NCBI GenBank assembly: GCA_020055645.1
Contig: CM034546.1
Span: 104,429,812 to 104,493,811 of the forward strand
Length of the DNA: 64,000 bases
DNA from: Tomocerus qinae
Lineage: Eukaryota > Arthropoda > Collembola > Entomobryomorpha > Tomoceridae
Reading direction: 5' to 3'
Shown: piece by piece, positions 28,833 through 39,781 of the stretch
Numbering within the stretch: the stretch's first letter is position 1
Layout: every line of letters starts with the position of its first letter
Notes under the pieces: generated by a model
Databases searched by the model: none
Told to the model about the DNA's origin: nothing
The model's input: the letters and a program-made list of their open reading frames with translations, nothing else
Made by a program: the position numbers and the translations under genes

Positions 28833-29510
28833 ATGAATTGTTATATATTATTCGGGATGTTTTCGACCTTTGCAACAGGTAATGAAAAAACGATATAAAT
28901 AAATTATAATGCTATGCTAATTAATTATGTACCCTTACACAAAAATTACAAGAATAACAGTTCTATATATTTTCAGTAATTTCATCTTTGTTTAATTCTA
29001 GTTTGGTGCAATGATAATATGCCCACGTTGTTGCATGAACGAAATCTCCCCAATAGTGTCAACTCAGATTGGCCGCAGCCTGTCAGTTCCAGTTCAAAAA
29101 GTGTTTGCGATACCAAGACCATTTTAAAAGATCTGAGAGAACGGCGGAACAAGATTCTAATTAGAGATTTTTATCAGGAGGTGTTTGGTGACAAAAATGT
29201 TAGTGCAATCGACAAGTATATCAACAGAGAGATTTATATTCAACACAATCCAACAATTGCAGATGGGCGACACGCCTTTAAAGAAGCTGCTGCTCAGTGG
29301 TTCAAAAATGCTCGAAGAGAAACAATCAATATTCAGCGAATCAGTGCTGATGGGGATTTGGTTTGGGTTCATACTAAAACAACTAACGATGTTGGAAAAT
29401 TGGCTTCCTGCATAGACATTTTTAGAATTCATCTTGGAAAAATCTTTGAGCACTGGGATGTCATTCAAGATGTACCAGAAGAATCAGCCAATTCTCATCC
29501 AATGTTTTAA
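28833..29510 (+). CDS. SnoaL-like (NTF2-fold) enzyme with leader exon
   Basis: Two exons, 28833-28878 and 29002-29510, join in phase 1 and encode 184 residues. The first exon gives a short hydrophobic leader (MNCYILFGMFSTFATG), a possible signal peptide. Residues 50-184 are a full SnoaL-like domain: KILIRDFYQEVFGDKN, then YIQHNP, DGRHAF, GDLVWVH, DIFRIHLGKIFEHWDVIQ and a terminal NSHPMF. This pattern is characteristic of the small bacterial and fungal proteins annotated as predicted SnoaL-like aldol-condensation enzymes. The conserved His/Asp residues line the pocket in that family; the substrate is unknown. The domain itself has no intron in this gene. Bacterial-type similarity plus an animal-type leader exon suggests old horizontal transfer, but this is inference. 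An AATAAA follows at 29792. Confidence 0.82.
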
Positions 29511-30245: not shown

Positions 30246-30538
30246 CATTATTATTAGATCAGAGGAGTCATCTTACATGTTGTCATTTTCGGATTTTCGT
30301 GGTAAAAGTAATGTTAATAAATTCTATAATTAAGTAGAAGTACATTTATTTGCATAGTGGCATGATTCCAGAAGAGTGTTAGCATGTAATTAAATGATGT
30401 AAGCATGTATCGGTAGCATTAGCAGTGTTCAAAACACGAAAATGACTCATTTACATAAGTATCAAAAAGAGGATGAAATCTCAACCTGTCTCACTTTGTT
30501 AACTATTGGGTGTCTATACTATATTATAATTTCCGGGA

Positions 30539-30576
30539 GTATGTATGTATGTATGTATGTATGTATGTATGTATGT
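30539..30576 (+). repeat. (GTAT)n microsatellite
   Basis: About nine GTAT units just inside the Helitron 5' end. The inverted partial copy at 37.9 kb carries a (CA)n tract at the same relative place. Confidence 0.9.
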
Positions 30577-30597
30577 GTGTCCGCCCCCCAGTTTCCC

Positions 30598-31525
30598 TAT
30601 GTTGACACTTCTAGAAGCAGTAAAACCCTATGTTGACACTTCTAGAAACAGTAAAACCCTATGTTGACACTTCTAGAAGCAGTAAAACCCTATGTTGACA
30701 CTTCTAGAAGCAGTAAAACCCTATGTTGACACTTCTAGAAGCAGTAAAACCCTATGTTGACACTTCTAGAAGCAGTAAGACCCTATGTTGACACTTCTAG
30801 AAGCAGTAAAACCCTATGTTGACACTTCTAGAAGCAGTAAAACGCTATGTTGACACTTCTAAAACCCTATGTTGACACTTCTAGAAGCAGTAAAACGCTA
30901 TGTTGACACTTCTAGAAGCAGTAAAACCCTATGTGGACACTTCTAGAAGCAGTAAAACCTTATGTTGACATTTCTAGAAGCTATAAAACCCTATGTTGAC
31001 ACTTCTAGAAGCTATAAAACCCTATGTTGACACTTCTAGAAGCTATAAAACCCTATGTTGACACTTCTAGAAGCTGTAAAACCCTATGTTGACACTTCTA
31101 GAAGCAGTAAAACCCTATGTTGACACTTCTAGAAGCAGTGAAACCCTATGTTGACACATTTAATAGCAATAAAACTCTATGTTGACACTTCTAGAAGCTG
31201 TAAAACCCTATGTTGACACTTCTAGAAGCAGTAAAACCCTATGTTGACACTTCTAGAAGCAGTAAAACCCTATGTTGACACTTCTAGAAACAGTAAAACC
31301 CTATGTTGACACTTCTAGAAGCAGTTAAGCCCTATGCTGATACTTCTAGAAGCAGTAAAACCCTATGTTGACACTTCTAGAAGCAGTAAAACCCTATGTT
31401 GACACTTCTAGAAGCAATGAAACCATATGTTGACACTTCTAGAAGCAATAATACTATATGTTGACACTTCCAGAAGTAGTAAAACCATATTTTGACACTT
31501 CTACAAACAGTGAAAACCCTATGTT
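30598..31525 (+). repeat. 31-bp minisatellite with heat-shock-element-like core
   Basis: About thirty monomers of 31 bases. Each monomer starts TATGTTGACACTTCTAGAAG and ends GTAAAACCC. By eye, 26 monomers keep TTCTAGAA and one has TTCCAGAA. TTCnnGAA is the tail-to-tail pair of 5-bp units in the heat-shock element bound by HSF (established). The 31-base period is close to three helical turns. One monomer near 30850 is truncated, and one near 31160 has lost the palindrome. Confidence 0.9.
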
Positions 31526-33210
31526 ATGTTATTTTAATTGGAATGGGGCGGTGAGGTTAAGACTACATGTAGATGAACCAATTATGTTATTTTGGATGGC
31601 GCCGGGATGTGTAGGCTACATGTCGATGAAGCAACTATGTTAATTTGGAAGAGGCTGGGATATGGAGACCACATTCCGATGAAACAATTGTTACTTGGGG
31701 GGTGGAGGTTACATTTCGATGAGAAGTTATTATTTGGGATGGAGAAGGGAGGTAGAAACTTCATGTCGCTGTAATAATAGTTATTTGGGGGAAGGTGCAG
31801 GTTACATGTCGGTGAAACAATTGTTATTTAGGTAGGGGCGGGGAGGTGGATGGAGGTTACACGTCGGTGAAGAAGTTGTTTTTTAAGGAGGGGGCGGTAA
31901 GGTGTAGACCACAGGTCGTTAAAACAATTGTTATTTGGGAAGGGGTGCGGATAGGCTATATGTCAGTGAGAAGTTGCTATTTGGGAGGGAGAATGGAGGT
32001 CGAAATTTCATGTCGCTGAAACAATTGTTATTTGGGAGGGGGAGGTGCAGGCTACATGTCAGTGAAACAATTGTTATTTGGGAAGGGGTGGGGAGGTGGA
32101 CTGAGGTTACATGTCGCTGAAAAAGTTGTTATTTGGGAGGGGGCGGGAAGGTGGAGACTACATGTCGTTGAAACAATTGTTATTTGGGAAGGGGTGGGGA
32201 TAGGCTATATGTCGGTGAGAAGTTGCTATTTGGGAGGGAGAAGGGAGGTAGAAACTTCATGTCGCTGAAACAATTGTTTTTGGGAATTGGAGGTGCAGGT
32301 TACATGTCGGTGAAACATTTGTTATTTGGGAAGGGGTGGGGATAGGCTATATGTCGGTGAGAAGTTGCTATTTGGGAGGGAGAAGGGAGATAGAAACTTC
32401 ATGTCGCTGAAACAATTGTTTTTGGGAATTGGAGGTGCAGGTTACATGTCGGTGAAACATTTGTTATTTGGGAAGGGGCAGGGAGGTGGAGACTACATGT
32501 CGTTGAAACCATTATTATTTGGGAAGGGGTGGGGATAGGCAATATATCGGTGAGAATTTGTTATTTGGGAGGGAGAAGGGAGGTAAAAACTAAATGTCGC
32601 TGAAACAATTGTTATTTGGGAAGGGGAGGTGGAGTTTACATGTCGGTGAAACATTTGTCATTTGGGAAGGTGCGGGGAGGTGGATGGAGGTTACATGTCG
32701 GTGAAATAGTTATTATTTGGGAGGGGGCGGGAAGGTGGAGACTACATGTCCCTGAAACGATTGTAATTTGGGAAGGGGCGGGGAGGAAGAAGCTACACGT
32801 CAGTGAGAAGTTGTTATTTGGGAAGGAGCGGGTAGGTAGAAACTTCATGTCGCTGAAACAATTGTTATTTAGGAAGGGGCGGGGAGGTGGATGGAGGTTA
32901 TATGTCGGTGAAAAAGTTGTTATTTGGGAGGGTGCGAGAAGTGGAGACTACATATCGTTGAAACAATTGATATTTGGGAAGGGGCGGGGAGGTGGATGGA
33001 GGTTATATGTCGGTGAAAAAGTTGTTATTTGGGAGGGTGCGAGAAGTGGAGACTACATATCGTTGAAACAATTGTTATTTGGGAAGGGGCGGGGAGGTGG
33101 AGGTTACACGTTGGTGCAAAAGTTGTTATTTGGGAGGGGGAGGGGGCGGGGGCTGGAGATTTCATGTCGATGAAACAATTATGTTTTTTGGTTAGGGACG
33201 GGGAGGTGAG
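31526..33210 (+). repeat. G-rich minisatellite, units of about 47-57 bp
   Basis: Units contain GTTATTTGGGAAGGGG-CGGGG, then AGGTGGAG, TACATGTCGGTGAAA and CAATT. Variable unit length moves the frame, so the apparent open frames (for example 32616-33173, with repeated VIWEGAG) are products of the repeat. At 33132-33152 four G-runs separated by single bases meet the usual G-quadruplex pattern. Confidence 0.85.
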
Positions 33211-33406
33211 ACTACTGAATGGTACGAATTGGTCGAGTTTGTATAGGGAACTGTGGTATGAAATATCAGTGCACTTGAGCTAGGGATTGGTCATATTTGA
33301 ATTTTTAATTTTGCTTTATGTGAAACAGAGCCCTGTCGTAGGACGGGCTAACCAGCTAGTATGGCATATTTTATGGGTATACTCAACATACACATGACAC
33401 ACACAC

Positions 33407-34516
33407 GGCTCATCCTATATACCCGACACCCGACAGTCAAATACCGGACAACCGACACCCTCCCACCCGACGCCCGACAACGACCAAATACTATCTACCC
33501 GACACCCGACAGCGAACTACCAGACACCCGATGCCTTCCCACCCGATGCCCGACAGCCCCCAAATCCTTCCCACCCAACGCCCGACAACTAACTACCGGA
33601 CACCCGATGCCTAACCAACCGACACCCGCCGCCTTCCCACCCGACAACTGACGCCCTTCTACCCGACATTTAGATTTTTGGAAAAATAAAATTTTTATAA
33701 TGTAAATTATTTTGTTTATGACTGCAGTGTAAATTATCTTGTTTATGAGAGTAATTATGTAACAATGTGCATGCCTTTGTGTTTATCTATCATTGCCTAG
33801 ACTTTACAGATATCGCTTCTTTCGAAGGCAATAAACTTTTAAAATTTGTTTAGTAGATACGCAAATATACTCAATAAAAATGAATTTTTCAATTAGTATT
33901 TGCCTTCTAGCAAATAAGGATAAAGGATGGCAATTAAAAATTTTACATTTTGGCGAACCAATGGTTCTTTTATTTGACACATTTAATACGGAGTATGGAT
34001 ACATAAACAACAACTATATAATTTGGTACACAGCATAATTGTAATGCAAACACATTAAAGATAAAATCATAATTTATGTACATCGTCTAGCAATCAATTT
34101 TAAATTTATTTCAGTAAAATTGAGGAACTTTATTAAATCTAACTACTATTTTATCTGGGCGTACAGGTCTGTCTAGTGGTCTAAACAGCCGCTTCTCAGG
34201 CTGATGTCTGGAGTTTGAATCTCTGGAGCGCCTCAGGTCTATAAGGTAGTAGTCTGGAGCTGGGAGAAGCTGTCATTGCCGTATATTCGTTATTAGCATT
34301 GATTTGCCTATCTTAGTGACAATATGATTATCTATCAATGCCCTGTCTGTAGTGTATGGATTGTTCTGTTGGTCTGTATACGTGCTACGAGTTCTACCTA
34401 GGACAAGTCTGGACAATGGGATGCACATGAGGTGATAAGGTGGATTGAAGTAGACTGCCATAAGTGATTTGTCTGCGGTCACTGGCGGTCGGCTTACATG
34501 TCCCGGTCCCTCTCTG
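33407..34516 (+). repeat. Left terminal inverted repeat
   Basis: It begins GGCTCATCCTATATACCCGA, then about 250 bases of degenerate CCGACA/CCCGACG repeats, then about 850 bases of unique sequence. It contains a tRNA-like segment and is repeated in reverse at 38671-39781. Identical conceptual peptides are read from both arms; they are not genes. Confidence 0.85.
34158..34233 (+). other. tRNA-like segment (SINE head or tRNA relic) in the left arm
   Basis: An A-box-like TGTCTAGTGGTC (34170-34181) and a B-box-like GAGTTTGAATCTC are about 40 bases apart. Between them a perfect five-pair anticodon-type stem, CAGCC/GGCTG (34186-34203), encloses an 8-base loop. A five-pair T-arm with loop TTTGAAT and a partly paired acceptor stem can also be drawn. 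The 8-base loop argues against a functional tRNA. The copy in the right arm lies at about 38954-39029, inverted. Confidence 0.45.
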
Positions 34517-34755
34517 TCTGCTCACCAGATCGAGTTGCGGGACAGTGTTGAGTCGTTCCGTCTCATGGTTCAGTACTCTTCACTAAGTCACTTCGTGTAA
34601 TCGTGTAAGTCTGTACACTTAGTAAATTTGTTCCGGGAGTCACTGCAAGTAAGCCCTCGCGGCTTGAGCGGTAGCATAGCTCTACTAATCAATAGTAGTA
34701 GCCGTGCTCTCCCCCTAACACACACACTATTTTATCTATTTAGAACCTTGTTTTT

Positions 34756-35743
34756 AGCTCGCCTGATAAGGCAGCTTATAGAATCGCACAGTCCGTCCGT
34801 CCGTCCGTCCGTCCGTCCGTTTACACGATAACTTTTGAAGACATTGATGGATTTCAACTAAACTTGGCAAAAACATTGCCAATGGGCCTGTGACAAAGCC
34901 TATTGAAAATGAGCCACATTGGTCCATAGGTTGCTGAGATGCCGCGCGCTCACTTTGTCTTCAATTTGATAGTCAAAATGAAAATGTGACATTAAATGGA
35001 CATTAAAAGTTCTAATGTGCTTCCTATGGATTGTTAGCGGGATAGTACAAAATATTAAATGCCGCTTCGACAAAATTTAAGATTTTATAATAAATTCAAT
35101 AAAACTGGAAAATACCTATTATAGGACGAAAATAAATCTATTTCGCATTTATATGCAAATAGATAGTTAAATTTATATTTTTCGAATTGCTTTCCATTAT
35201 GATAGCCAACATTAATCAATTTTGATTTTCTGTTGATTTTCATACTCAACATTAATAAATTTTGATTTTCTGTTGCTTTTCATAGTCAACATGATTAAAT
35301 TTTGATTTTCTATAGATTTTCATAGTCAACAATTATCTATTTTGATTTTCTGTTGCTTTTCATAGTCAACATCAATCAATTTTGATTTTCTGTTGATTTC
35401 CATATTCAACATTAATAAATTTTGATTTTCTATAGATTTTCATAGTCAACAATTATCTATTTTGATTTTCTGTTGATTTTCATAGTCAAAAATTAATCTA
35501 TTTTGATCTTCTGTTGATTTTCATTGTCAGGATTAATCTATTTTGAGTTTCTGTTGATTTTCATAGTCAACGTTAATCTGCTTTGATTTTCTATTGACTT
35601 TGATGGTCAACATTCATACATTTTGACTTTGATACTCAATATTAACCAATAAATATGAAAATAAACCTGTTTCTATTATTCTATTAAAACTGTGTACACG
35701 GCCCCCTTCACTCAGGCGAGCTTCTGTTACGGCTTGCCGTAGG
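34756..35743 (+). mobile_element. Helentron/HINE-like element, copy 1
   Basis: It starts AGCTCGCCTGATAAGG after a T-run. It carries a (CCGT)n tract near 34795 and a 40-bp tandem repeat core (35200-35640; TTTTGATTTTCTGTTG, CATAGTCAAC). It ends with the complementary CAGGCGAGCT and a hairpin, TACGGC-TT-GCCGTA (35728-35741), followed by GG and a T-run. Short subterminal inverted repeats, tandem core, 3' hairpin and T/T borders without duplication match HINE/Helentron-type non-autonomous elements. Confidence 0.6.
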
Positions 35744-36306
35744 TTTTTAACATATTAAGCTGACGTGACAGAAAGCTAAATTCTGTCGGGTTCTTTGGGA
35801 CATACAGATTGTTGGTGAGACGTTTCACCAATGTTGTTTGCATAGAAAACAACTGCATTACTTGGGTGTTTTTTAAATCACCATTATGATTGTCAAAATG
35901 GCCAATACTACTAGCAAAATTACTAAAACAGCAACAAAGTTGTAATCAAAATCTTTTGGTTTTGTTTCCGATGTCTTTGACTATTTCGGGTTTCACAAAA
36001 GGGACCAAATGCTTCATGGTTTTTTTTAATTATTGCTGAGTCATTACTTATATAGACAGCCTCGGTTGCAAATAAAATATTTGTAACAGCAATGGTTGAT
36101 GTTGATATGGTTTTGGTAGCACTAGTAGGCCTCCTGAATTTTAGCGGATACCGTGTTGGAGGTCCAAAAATCTGGGAAAAAGTAGTGGATATTATTAGAA
36201 ATAAAACGGCCGCCCTCATAACCCTTCCCGCGAAGACAGTCATCATCAGAAGTGCTAATTGATGTCGTTAAACCTGAAAATGCGTTAAAAATCGCAAAAA
36301 TATAAA

Positions 36307-36563
36307 CCTACGGCAAGCCGTAACAGAAGCTCGCCTGAGTGAAGGGGACCCTGTACACAGTTTTAGTAGAATAATAGAAGTAGGTTTATTTTCATATTTA
36401 TTGGTTAGTTGACCATCAAAGTCAACAGGGAATAAAAATAGATTAATATTGACTATGGAAATCAACAGAAAATCAAAGTAGATTAAATTTGACCATCAAA
36501 AGCAATAGAAAATCAATATAGATTAATGTTGACTTCCAAAATCAGCAGAAAATCAAAATAGAA
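36307..36563 (-). mobile_element. Helentron/HINE-like element, copy 2, 5'-truncated
   Basis: The 3' hairpin end (CCTACGGCAAGCCGTA at 36307), the complementary GCTCGCCTGAG and part of the AGTCAAC tandem core are on the minus strand. The element breaks off at about 36563, directly into reversed 31-bp minisatellite units. Confidence 0.6.
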
Positions 36564-36628
36564 CATAAGATATTCTAGAAGTGTCAACATAGGGTTTTAC
36601 TGCTTCTAGAAGTGTCAACATAGGTTTT
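36564..36628 (-). repeat. Reversed 31-bp minisatellite units
   Basis: Two monomers of the Helitron minisatellite in reverse orientation (TTCTAGAA in each), broken after CATAGG by the element that follows. Confidence 0.8.
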
Positions 36629-37743
36629 AGCTCGCCTGAATAAGGCAGCTTATAGAACCGTATTGTCTGTCCGTCCGTCCGTCCGTCCGTCCGTCCGTCC
36701 GGACGCACGATAACTTTCGAACGCATTGACCGAAGTTGACCAAATTACGCATAAACAATGCCTATGGACTGGGGACGAACCCTATTGATTTTGGGTCAAA
36801 TCGGTCCATAAGTTGCTGAGATACCGCGCGCTCACTTTGTCTTTATTTGATAGTCAAAGCAGAAAATGGGCCATAAAAATTTCAATTGTGTTTCAATTGT
36901 TAGCGGGATAGTATAAAATATTTAACTCCGCTTCTACCAAATTTAAGATTTTATAATAACGTAAATGAAACTGCAAAATGCACATTATAGGATGAAAATA
37001 AATCAATTTCGAATTTATATTCAAATTGATAGTCAAATTCCTTTTTTCGATTTCCTTTTAATTTTGATAGTCATTATTAACCGACCTTAAATTTCTGTTG
37101 ATTTTAATACTCATAATCAATCAAAGTTGAATATCTGTTGATTTTCATAGTCAACATTAATGTATTTTCATAGTCAGCATTAATCAATTTTGATTTTCTG
37201 TTGATTTTTATGGTCAACATTAATGTACTTTGATTTTCTATTAATTTTTAAAGTCAACATTAATGTACTTTGAGTTTCTGTTGATTTTTATAGTCAACAT
37301 TAATACTAATATGTTTTCATTATGTATTGATTTAGATAGTCAATATTAATATATTTTGAATTTTGATTTTCTGTTGATTTCCATTGTCAACATTAATCAA
37401 TTTTGATTTTCTATTGATTTTCATATTCAAAATTAATCAATTTTGATTTCTGTTGATTTTCATAGTCAACATTAATCAATTTCGATTTTCTGTTGATTTT
37501 CATAGTCAACATTTATCAATTTAGATTTTTTGTTGATTTTTCAAATAATATAGCTTCGTTTCCTTATAATATCAATGTCTGAATTTTTAATATGTCGTAG
37601 CTACATATTTAAAGACTCATTTCCGAAAGTTAGATCAAAATCAGTGCGCTCGTTTTTGTTTTACGTGCGAGTACTTTTCGTCTACCAAAATGTGTACACG
37701 GTAACCTTTACTCAGGCGAGCTTCTGTTACGGCTTGCTGTAGG
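36629..37743 (+). mobile_element. Helentron/HINE-like element, copy 3, inserted in a minisatellite
   Basis: Same ends as copy 1: AGCTCGCCTGAATAAGG with (CCGT)n at 36668, a 40-bp tandem core (37080-37540) and 3' CAGGCGAGCT plus a hairpin with one mismatch (TACGGC-TT-GCTGTA). The left flank ends CATAGGTTTT and the right flank begins TTTTTACT. Together these rebuild one minisatellite monomer, CATAGGGTTTTACTG, so the insertion point is visible and lies in a T-run. Confidence 0.7.
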
Positions 37744-37880
37744 TTTTTACTATTTCCAAAAGTGTCAACATAGGGTTTTACTGCTTCTGGAAGTGTCGAC
37801 ATAGGGTTTTACTGCTTCCAAAAGTGTCAACATAGGGTTTAACTGCTTCTAGAAGTGTCAACATGGGTAAAATGAGGGGT

Positions 37881-37915
<35 letters not shown>

Positions 37916-37944
37916 TACGCCCGGAAATTATAATATAGTATAGA
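37744..37944 (-). mobile_element. 5' end fragment of a second Helitron copy
   Basis: On the minus strand this reads A|TCTATACTATATTATAATTT, then a GTATGTATG/(TG)n microsatellite, then 31-bp minisatellite units. The order matches the start of the Helitron at 30513. Its 3' half is missing. The (CA)n tract is at 37882-37910. Confidence 0.75.
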
Positions 37945-38189
37945 TTATTTAGATGATTTAATTTGGTAAACAAATATTGATGATTAAAAATAAAATTACA
38001 AATGAATGTGGAGTGGAGTAACACTTGGACGTATACTAAAGATGTTAAAACTACTTGAAAGAGAATGAAGACAATGTAGACAGTTACAAAGATCTTGAAA
38101 TATCCGAGCACATATATAATACAAAATTGAAGCAAGCAGAAGAATAGTAAAAGTATTATTTCTTTCATGATGTCCTGGGAACAAACGCT

Positions 38190-38665
38190 GACTATGTTGT
38201 TTCCCCGCCGGAAGTCTCACCGCGTTTGGTACACAGTTGCGGTTGAGGCTCCTGGAGAACACTCCCAGGATTTACATCCCCGCCGGAGCTTTCGTTACCG
38301 TAGCAACCGTTCCTGGAGAAGTCACCACGGCTCCATTCACTACCAGAGCCCGCGTTGCCTTTGGAATTGGTTGATGAAGGAGACTCCGTGGGAACACTCT
38401 CCGCATTGACAATCCCCGCCGTAGCAGTCGTTGCCGTACCAACCATTCCCGGAGGAGTCTCCCCGTGAGTATTATCTCTACACATTTATATACTCCGCCG
38501 GAACTCTCGCAGCGTTTGGTACCCGTTGGCGGTTGAGGCTCAGAGAGAACACTCCCAAGATTTACATCCCCACCGGAGCTTTCGTAGCCGTAGCTACCGT
38601 TTCCGGAGGAATGACCACGAGTGGATTACCTTCAAGAGCCCGCGTTGCCTTTGGAACCAGTCGGT
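38190..38665 (-). repeat. GC-rich direct duplication inside the long-TIR element
   Basis: Two copies of about 165 bases (about 38200-38365 and 38495-38660) share GAGCCCGCGTTGCCTTTGGA and TTTACATCCCC. Read on the minus strand, both copies give the same Gly/Ser/Asn-rich frame (SKGNAGS, YGNESSGGDVN / YGYESSGGDVN). The second copy is broken by stops. The base composition is much richer in GC than the surroundings. It may be a captured gene piece; there is no family match. Confidence 0.5.
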
Positions 38666-38670
38666 AAAGG

Positions 38671-39781
38671 CAGAGAGGGACCGGGACATGTAAGCCGACC
38701 GCCAGTGACCGCAGACAAATCACTTATGGCAGTCTACTTCAATCCACCTTATCACCTCATGTGCATCCCATTGTCCAGACTTGTCCTAGGTAGAACTCGT
38801 AGCACGTATACAGACCAACAGAACAATCCATACACTACAGACAGGGCATTGATAGATAATCATATTGTCACTAAGATAGGCAAATCAATGCTAATAACGA
38901 ATATACGGCAATGACAGCTTCTCCCAGCTCCAGACTACTACCTTATAGACCTGAGGCGCTCCAGAGATTCAAACTCCAGACATCAGCCTGAGAAGCGGCT
39001 GTTTAGACCACTAGACAGACCTGTACGCCCAGATAAAATAGTAGTTAGATTTAATAAAGTTCCTCAATTTTACTGAAATAAATTTAAAATTGATTGCTAG
39101 ACGATGTACATAAATTATGATTTTATCTTTAATGTGTTTGCATTACAATTATGCTGTGTACCAAATTATATAGTTGTTGTTTATGTATCCATACTCCGTA
39201 TTAAATGTGTCAAATAAAAGAACCATTGGTTCGCCAAAATGTAAAATTTTTAATTGCCATCCTTTATCCTTATTTGCTAGAAGGCAAATACTAATTGAAA
39301 AATTCATTTTTATTGAGTATATTTGCGTATCTACTAAACAAATTTTAAAAAGTTTATTGCCTTCGAAAGAAGCGATATCTGTAAAGTCTAGGCAATGATA
39401 GATAAACACAAAGGCATGCACATTGTTACATAATTACTCTCATAAACAAGATAATTTACACTGCAGTCATAAACAAAATAATTTACATTATAAAAATTTT
39501 ATTTTTCCAAAAATCTAAATGTCGGGTAGAAGGGCGTCAGTTGTCGGGTGGGAAGGCGGCGGGTGTCGGTTGGTTAGGCATCGGGTGTCCGGTAGTTAGT
39601 TGTCGGGCGTTGGGTGGGAAGGATTTGGGGGCTGTCGGGCATCGGGTGGGAAGGCATCGGGTGTCTGGTAGTTCGCTGTCGGGTGTCGGGTAGATAGTAT
39701 TTGGTCGTTGTCGGGCGTCGGGTGGGAGGGTGTCGGTTGTCCGGTATTTGACTGTCGGGTGTCGGGTATATAGGATGAGCC
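38671..39781 (-). repeat. Right terminal inverted repeat
   Basis: Reverse complement of 33407-34516, ending ATGAGCC at 39781, with the CCCGACA-type repeats outermost. Its outer end lies 455 bases upstream of the Rbx1 start codon. Confidence 0.85.

What the first reader, a model, noticed from the sequence alone, without database searches (positions are those of the whole stretch)
30513..33359. Helitron carrying about 26 heat-shock-element cores in a 31-bp array
The element has canonical Helitron ends. Its first minisatellite repeats TTCTAGAA (consensus TTCnnGAA) every 31 bases, close to three helical turns, so the sites would face the same side of the DNA. Each site is a two-unit HSE; strong HSF binding usually wants three units. 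From memory, published work in Caenorhabditis describes Helitrons that spread HSF-1 sites, so this could be an independent arthropod case. Binding and heat response here are inference.
Basis: partly seen in the sequence, partly recalled or inferred. Interest (0 to 1): 0.85.

Follow-up and report, generated by a model that had tools for sequence, protein, structure and literature searches.

The report
Helitron with a heat-shock-like repeat array
A common non-coding jumping element in this genome carries a long tandem repeat whose unit happens to contain a short heat-shock-factor-type site; the element and repeat are real, but the site is no better preserved than the rest of the unit, so a heat-shock role is possible but not supported by the sequence.

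Summary
Window 30513-33359 is a non-autonomous Helitron (TC...CTAG ends, 3' hairpin) with a 31-bp minisatellite holding 26 TTCTAGAA and 27 TTCnnGAA. Its family has 219 5' ends and 179 3' ends at up to 3 mismatches. 29 of 30 fetched exact 5' ends carry the array.

Over 862 monomers TTCnnGAA survives in 67.6%, rank 11 of 31 among identical footprints slid round the unit. C15 and G18 (the C of TTC, the G of GAA) rank 25 and 26 of 31 positions. Perfect three-unit sites occur in 2 of 860 monomers. A shuffled unit contains TTCnnGAA 1.3% of the time; tandem amplification multiplies one accident.

In favour: TTCnnGAA is a real two-site HSE, the genome has a normal HSF DNA-binding domain, and 1,362 of 9,649 genomic TTCTAGAA (14%) have this repeat's flank. 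HSF binding stays testable.

Verdict: ordinary minisatellite-bearing Helitron; incidental HSE-like core; heat function unproven.

The parts
30513..33359 (+). Non-autonomous Helitron, 2,847 bp, 5' TC to 3' CTAG
   Evidence: ends read; 219 5' ends and 179 3' ends genome-wide with up to 3 mismatches, reversed controls 0; flank bases of 40 5' and 34 3' ends
30513..30544 (+). 5' terminal 32-mer TCTATACTATATTATAATTTCCGGGAGTATGT
   Evidence: 36 exact places among the 219 with up to 3 mismatches
30539..30580 (+). GTAT microsatellite between 5' end and array
30595..31525 (+). 31-bp minisatellite, 30 monomers by my parse, 26 TTCTAGAA and 27 TTCnnGAA cores
31560..33215 (+). Second minisatellite, about 51-53-bp units (TRF rows 31560-31689 and 31789-33215); 31526-33215 holds the 10-bp palindrome AACAATTGTT 11 times and no TTCnnGAA
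   Evidence: 28 of 30 fetched 3' ends show a stretch of its unit (TTATTTGGGA) in the 1.5 kb upstream
33329..33349 (+). 3' subterminal hairpin, 10 nt before the CTAG end
   Evidence: its sequence is part of the 3' 30-mer
37740..37944 (-). Truncated second copy: 5' end plus 4 monomers (2 with TTCnnGAA); no 3' end was paired with it

Best explanation
This is a non-autonomous Helitron family that carries two internal minisatellites and is spread by rolling-circle transposition supplied by an autonomous Helitron elsewhere (inferred). The 31-bp unit contained TTCTAGAA by chance when it was first amplified. Slippage or unequal exchange then multiplied and partly homogenised it (4 to 46 recognised units in the 29 array-bearing exact 5' ends, counted only within the 1.5 kb fetched), and transposition scattered the arrays. 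The HSE-like core is therefore hitch-hiking rather than maintained: its bases vary about as freely as the rest of the unit. Shown: ends, insertion flanks, family size, array presence, lack of core-specific conservation. Inferred: rolling-circle spread, slippage, chance origin, absence of heat function.
For: Ends and A/T insertion flanks; family counts with zero in reversed controls; 96 matches to the Helitron domain PF14214 in the genome. Core conservation with the core masked during monomer selection: 465 of 680 monomers in the 30 exact 5'-end copies, rank 13 of 31 slid footprints; 67.6% of 862 in all arrays in hand, rank 11 of 31, median 62.5%. Position means: six core bases 91.6%, the two nn bases 89.9%, the other 23 bases 90.3%; C15 and G18 rank 25 and 26 of 31; core against rest in the 30 copies, one-sided Mann-Whitney p 0.27. 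Variants at C15, G18 and A19 occur in 34, 35 and 31 of 44 arrays. A C-to-A change at position 10 would give a perfect three-unit HSE, but only 9 of 860 monomers have that A and 2 of 860 carry GAAnnTTCnnGAA; 0 carry TTCnnGAAnnTTC. Chance of TTCnnGAA in a shuffled 31-mer is 0.0126, before counting all the other motifs that could have been noticed.
Against: TTCTAGAA is the majority core (403 of 680), T13, T14 and A20 are among the best-kept bases, and the core mean (rank 14 of 31) and intact fraction (rank 11 of 31) lie slightly above the middle of the rotations. In the window's own array the core is intact in 27 of 29 recognised monomers. TTCTAGAA is over-represented in the genome (9,649 against 6,277 for the reversed word), and 1,362 have this repeat's flank. 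Monomers within an array are not independent, so the conservation test has fewer real observations than 862.
Confidence: 0.78

Rival explanations
1. The arrays are real HSF-binding platforms: HSF trimers bind the two-site core plus the imperfect GAC unit, and array-bearing insertions recruit neighbouring genes to the heat-shock response or soak up HSF, as reported for Helitrons of Caenorhabditis.
For: Tail-to-tail two-site HSEs are bound by HSF1/2 with higher affinity than head-to-head ones, as PMC8379338 states citing earlier work (passages). The genome encodes an HSF DNA-binding domain close to Drosophila HSF (E 1.8e-43). 550 of 860 monomers read GACnnTTCnnGAA. 1,362 of 9,649 genomic TTCTAGAA have this repeat's flank. 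Precedent: HSF-1 and Pol II occupancy at Caenorhabditis Helitron HSEs (PMC6927752, abstract and sections).
Against: C15 and G18 are among the less conserved positions; strong three-unit sites are nearly absent (2 of 860). The nearest of the 100 listed 5' ends (of 219) to an HSP70 or HSP20 match is 215 kb away (which took 67 of the 98 matches, leaving out further exons of the same loci); recruitment of other genes was not testable. No expression or binding data are available.
Confidence: 0.12
2. The palindrome CTTCTAGAAG works as DNA structure: neighbouring units pair into hairpins in single-stranded intermediates, which drives array expansion or helps transposition. The second array also has a 10-bp palindrome, AACAATTGTT.
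For: Two two-unit stretches of the array fold better than shuffles as single-stranded DNA (z -3.1 and -4.2). Both minisatellite consensus units contain a perfect 10-bp palindrome, expected in 4.0% and 1.8% of shuffled units.
Against: The diverged second copy does not fold better than shuffles (z -0.8). The common variants TTCTAATA, TTCTAAAA and TTTTAGAA break the palindrome, so it is not maintained either.
Confidence: 0.08

Closest known systems
Non-autonomous Helentrons (HINEs) carrying satellite-like arrays in Crassostrea gigas (PMC7492417; passages seen)
   Same: Non-autonomous Helitron-superfamily element with a microsatellite near a central tandem array, in a few cases two arrays, dispersed through the genome.
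   Different: HINEs have subterminal inverted repeats, units of about 140-180 bp and oligo-T insertion sites; this element has Helitron ends, 31-bp and about 51-bp units and inserts between A and T.
Caenorhabditis Helitrons with HSF-1 sites (PMC6927752; abstract, sections 5, 6, 8, 9 and some passages seen)
   Same: Helitrons holding many HSE-like sites that look repetitive and clustered.
   Different: There HSF-1 occupancy and heat induction were measured. For its cross-species scan the paper used a three-unit pattern and reports Helitron enrichment only in Caenorhabditis. Here the sites are two perfect units plus an imperfect one, the three-unit form occurs in 2 of 860 monomers, and no binding data exist.
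Heat-responsive satellites: human SATIII and Tribolium TCAST (review PMC9032817; passages seen)
   Same: Tandem non-coding repeats linked to heat shock; SATIII transcripts are HSF1 targets.
   Different: Those are centromeric or pericentric satellites with measured transcripts or siRNAs; these are short arrays inside dispersed transposons with nothing measured.

Membership tests
Helitron (non-autonomous) | 5' TC and 3' CTRR ends (feature recalled) | tested here: met
   TC at 30513, CTAG ending 33359; 34 of 34 3' ends in hand end in CTAG
Helitron (non-autonomous) | Insertion between A and T without target-site duplication (feature recalled) | tested here: met
   35 of 40 5' ends preceded by A, 34 of 34 3' ends followed by T; this copy itself has G on the 5' side. 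Empty sites and the lack of a duplication were not examined.
Helitron (non-autonomous) | Hairpin about 10-12 nt before the 3' end (feature recalled) | tested here: met
   Hairpin ends 10 nt before the CTAG end, though 17 of 200 shuffles fold as well; its sequence recurs in the 3' 30-mer
Helitron (non-autonomous) | Autonomous partner encoding Rep/helicase with the same ends | tested here: inconclusive
   96 PF14214 matches in the genome. One (C1:100278676, +) lies about 10 kb upstream of a 3' end (C1:100289093, +), but no exact 5' 13-mer lies between C1:98002433 and C1:100551805 and the DNA between was not read.
Helitron-borne HSF-site arrays (Caenorhabditis type) | HSE-like motif present in many copies of the element | tested here: met
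   29 of 30 exact 5'-end copies have 3 or more monomers, each array with at least 3 TTCnnGAA
Helitron-borne HSF-site arrays (Caenorhabditis type) | Canonical three-unit HSE | tested here: not met
   GAAnnTTCnnGAA in 2 of 860 monomers, TTCnnGAAnnTTC in 0
Helitron-borne HSF-site arrays (Caenorhabditis type) | HSF occupancy and heat induction of nearby genes | not testable with these tools
   no ChIP or RNA data
   rank 11 of 31 slid footprints; C15 and G18 rank 25 and 26 of 31 positions

The most novel reading that the evidence does not exclude
A Helitron family has, independently of the nematode case, scattered more than a thousand phased two-site HSF targets (1,362 with the exact repeat flank, about one in seven of the genome's TTCTAGAA). 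[quoted passage not shown]
Probability: 0.13. Interest if true: 0.75.

Novelty: new member of a known kind. Interest (0 to 1): 0.3.

Why it matters
It separates two questions that are easily run together: whether a transposon carries many transcription-factor-like sites, and whether those sites are kept as such. Here one motif amplified in tandem gives 26 'sites' in one element and over a thousand in the genome, with no sign that it is preserved. If HSF does bind them, it would be a clean natural test of whether unselected, phased two-site HSEs can rewire a heat response.

Tried and rejected
Phasing: 31 bp is near three helical turns, but this is simply the unit length and is shared by every base in it; I gave it no weight.

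Chance in the array: counting 27 sites against background (0.50 per kb) would look overwhelming but treats tandem copies as independent; I used the single-unit shuffle (1.3%) and slid footprints instead.

Placement near heat-shock genes: the nearest of the 100 listed 5' ends (of 219) to an HSP70/HSP20 match is 215 kb away (67 of 98 matches used, the others being further exons of the same loci). One 3' end with 1 mismatch (C1:80804815) lies about 2 kb from an HSP70-like match inside a long open frame, not a standard hsp70.

Autonomous partner: only a weak candidate; the 1.5 kb upstream of its possible 3' end (L058) has no frame of 90 aa or more on the element's strand.

Literature: the strings of the two ends and of the unit (4 strings) occur in 0 papers. 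Listings for Helitrons with heat-shock elements (235 papers, 20 listed, 36 papers, 15 listed, 4 papers, all listed) showed no report of an arthropod Helitron with HSEs by title or abstract start; this covers open-licence PMC papers only, and unlisted papers were not seen.

An early script did not turn the minus-strand loci round and so counted only 457 monomers; one search corrected it. One search ended with an error while saving a file, after its results were printed; those results are used. One search prints the inverted-repeat arms as 100%; one search shows they differ slightly.

Full report
What is there. The window lies at C1:104429812-104493811 of a 334-Mb genome. Positions 30513-33359 begin with TCTATACTATATT and end with CAGCTAG. 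A GTAT run at 30539-30580 is followed by a 31-bp array at 30595-31525 and then a second minisatellite of about 51-53-bp units to 33215. A hairpin at 33329-33349 sits 10 nt before the end. The array parses into 30 monomers with 27 TTCnnGAA, of which 26 are TTCTAGAA; the element has no TTCnnGAA outside the array. The only open frame of 110 aa or more inside the element (32604-33173) is a translation of the second minisatellite; I did not scan it against a library.

Is it a Helitron family. The defining features of Helitrons used here (TC and CTRR ends, A/T insertion, 3' hairpin) are recalled from general knowledge. The 5' 32-mer occurs at 219 places with up to 3 mismatches and the 3' 30-mer at 179; the same patterns read backwards occur at 0. 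In the stretches in hand, 35 of 40 5' ends follow A (3 T, 1 C, 1 G) and 34 of 34 3' ends are CTAG followed by T. Twelve of the 40 5' ends could be paired with a 3' end, giving lengths of 793 to 3,922 bp. This copy is one of the 5 whose 5' flank is not A. The genome has 96 matches to the Helitron domain PF14214, so a source of transposition proteins exists, but I could not tie one to these ends.

Is the array a family trait. The unit with its core masked occurs 1,949 times with up to 2 mismatches, against 0 for the reversed control. Of the 30 exact 5' ends fetched (the window's own included; 36 exact places exist), 29 have 3 or more units and one (L026) has none by the profile. For the 30 fetched 3' ends only the 1.5 kb upstream could be seen: 11 of 30 show the string TTGACAC of the unit and 28 of 30 show TTATTTGGGA of the second minisatellite; the rest of those copies lies outside the fetched DNA.

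Is the HSE core kept. I chose monomers with the tested bases masked and asked how often the six bases TTC and GAA are intact. In the 30 exact 5'-end copies it is 465 of 680 monomers, rank 13 of 31 when the same footprint is slid round the unit. In all stretches in hand (46 arrays, 44 of them with 3 or more units) it is 67.6% of 862, rank 11 of 31, median 62.5%. By position, leaving each position out of its own selection, the six core bases average 91.6%, the two free nn bases 89.9% and the other 23 bases 90.3%; the mean of the core ranks 14 of 31 rotations. TT at 13-14 and A at 20 are very well kept, but C15 and G18, the C of TTC and the G of GAA, rank 25 and 26 of 31. Variants at C15, G18 and A19 appear in 34, 35 and 31 of 44 arrays. 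If HSF binding had been kept, these should be among the best bases and nn the worst; that is not seen. Against this reading, the window's own array is unusually intact (27 of 29 recognised monomers), and the family values lie slightly above the median rotation; I do not find that convincing.

Is the site being improved. The unit reads GACacTTCtaGAA, so a C to A change at position 10 makes a perfect three-unit HSE. Of 860 monomers, 9 have that A and 2 have GAAnnTTCnnGAA; none has TTCnnGAAnnTTC. Genome-wide, GAAnnTTCnnGAA occurs 4,824 times against 3,411 for the reversed word, so the arrays in hand hardly add to strong sites.

What speaks for a heat link. TTCnnGAA is the tail-to-tail two-site HSE, which PMC8379338 says HSF1 and HSF2 bind with higher affinity than head-to-head sites, citing earlier work; the same source says that a trimer optimally binds three repeats (passages). 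The genome has an HSF domain: one exon passes the Pfam cut-off, and the domain read from L099 matches Drosophila HSF best among solved structures (149.9 bits, E 1.8e-43; human HSF1 133.8 bits). TTCTAGAA occurs 9,649 times against 6,277 for the reversed word, and 1,362 of these follow TTGACAC as in the unit, against 1 in the control: 14%, and probably a lower bound for the repeat because the flank had to match exactly. So the family does change the genome's stock of weak HSF sites, selected or not.

Chance. A shuffled 31-mer of this composition contains TTCnnGAA 1.26% of the time and TTCTAGAA 0.11%. These are small, but the motif was picked after reading the sequence, from all motifs a reader might know. 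The second array makes the same point: it holds AACAATTGTT 11 times, which resembles a SOX site (recalled, not tested).

Heat-shock genes. The nearest of the 100 listed 5' ends (of 219) to an HSP70 or HSP20 match is 215 kb away (with 67 of the 98 matches, one or more per locus). This says nothing about other genes.

Hairpins. Because the core is a palindrome, adjacent units can pair; two two-unit stretches fold better than shuffles (z -3.1 and -4.2), though the diverged second copy does not (z -0.8). The common core variants break the palindrome, so I hold this as a minor rival for how the array grew.

Comparison. Non-autonomous Helentrons of the Pacific oyster carry satellite-like arrays beside a microsatellite (PMC7492417, passages), the closest structural relatives that I saw described. 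Caenorhabditis Helitrons carry HSF-1 sites with measured occupancy and heat induction, and that paper's cross-species scan with a three-unit pattern reports enrichment only in Caenorhabditis (PMC6927752, section 9). The present family would score almost nothing by a three-unit pattern such as GAAnnTTCnnGAA (2 of 860). I file it as a Helitron with internal minisatellites and not as a demonstrated HSF-site carrier.

Limits. The fetched 5' ends are those with an exact 32-mer, so they favour one subfamily; among the 44 arrays of 3 or more units, 12 had no 5' end in view and 3 belonged to other 5'-end subfamilies. Arrays may run past the fetched 1.5 kb. Monomers in an array share history. No functional data exist. 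The arthropod label is unverified.

Noticed in passing
window 33407-39781: A 6.4-kb structure with about 1.1-kb inverted arms (33407-34519 and 38668-39781) that are identical except for a one-base length difference and one mismatch at the inner end. An 801-bp part of the arm recurs as four inverted pairs about 5 kb apart at 99-100% identity (C1:104463511, C4:3547219, C1:102326564, C1:84337308), and each pair encloses a Helitron 5' end of the GGGCGTATGT type. So the truncated second Helitron piece of the window looks like a passenger of another young mobile element, which starts 47 bases after the 3' end of the main Helitron.
   Followed up: partly
G000 C1:26.9-27.4 Mb and C1:128.9-132.4 Mb: Many HSP70-domain matches (E down to 4e-183) lie in open frames of about 600 to 1,850 codons, unlike the 653-662-codon hsp70 frames at C2:14.68 Mb. 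This looks like a repeated large gene or mobile element with an HSP70 domain.
   Followed up: no
window 31526-33215: The second minisatellite also contains a perfect 10-bp palindrome, AACAATTGTT, 11 times.
   Followed up: partly
window 28980-29510: An open frame with a SnoaL-like domain (PF07366, E 9.2e-10; 10 of the 30 frames listed were scanned) lies about 1 kb upstream of the Helitron.
   Followed up: no
L037 and L038 (C4:33655142 and C4:33807982): Two Helitron copies have nearly identical 12-base upstream flanks (TGGCTATTGGTA and TGGCTATTGCTA) but 45 and 6 recognised array units, suggesting a duplicated locus whose array length changed greatly.
   Followed up: no
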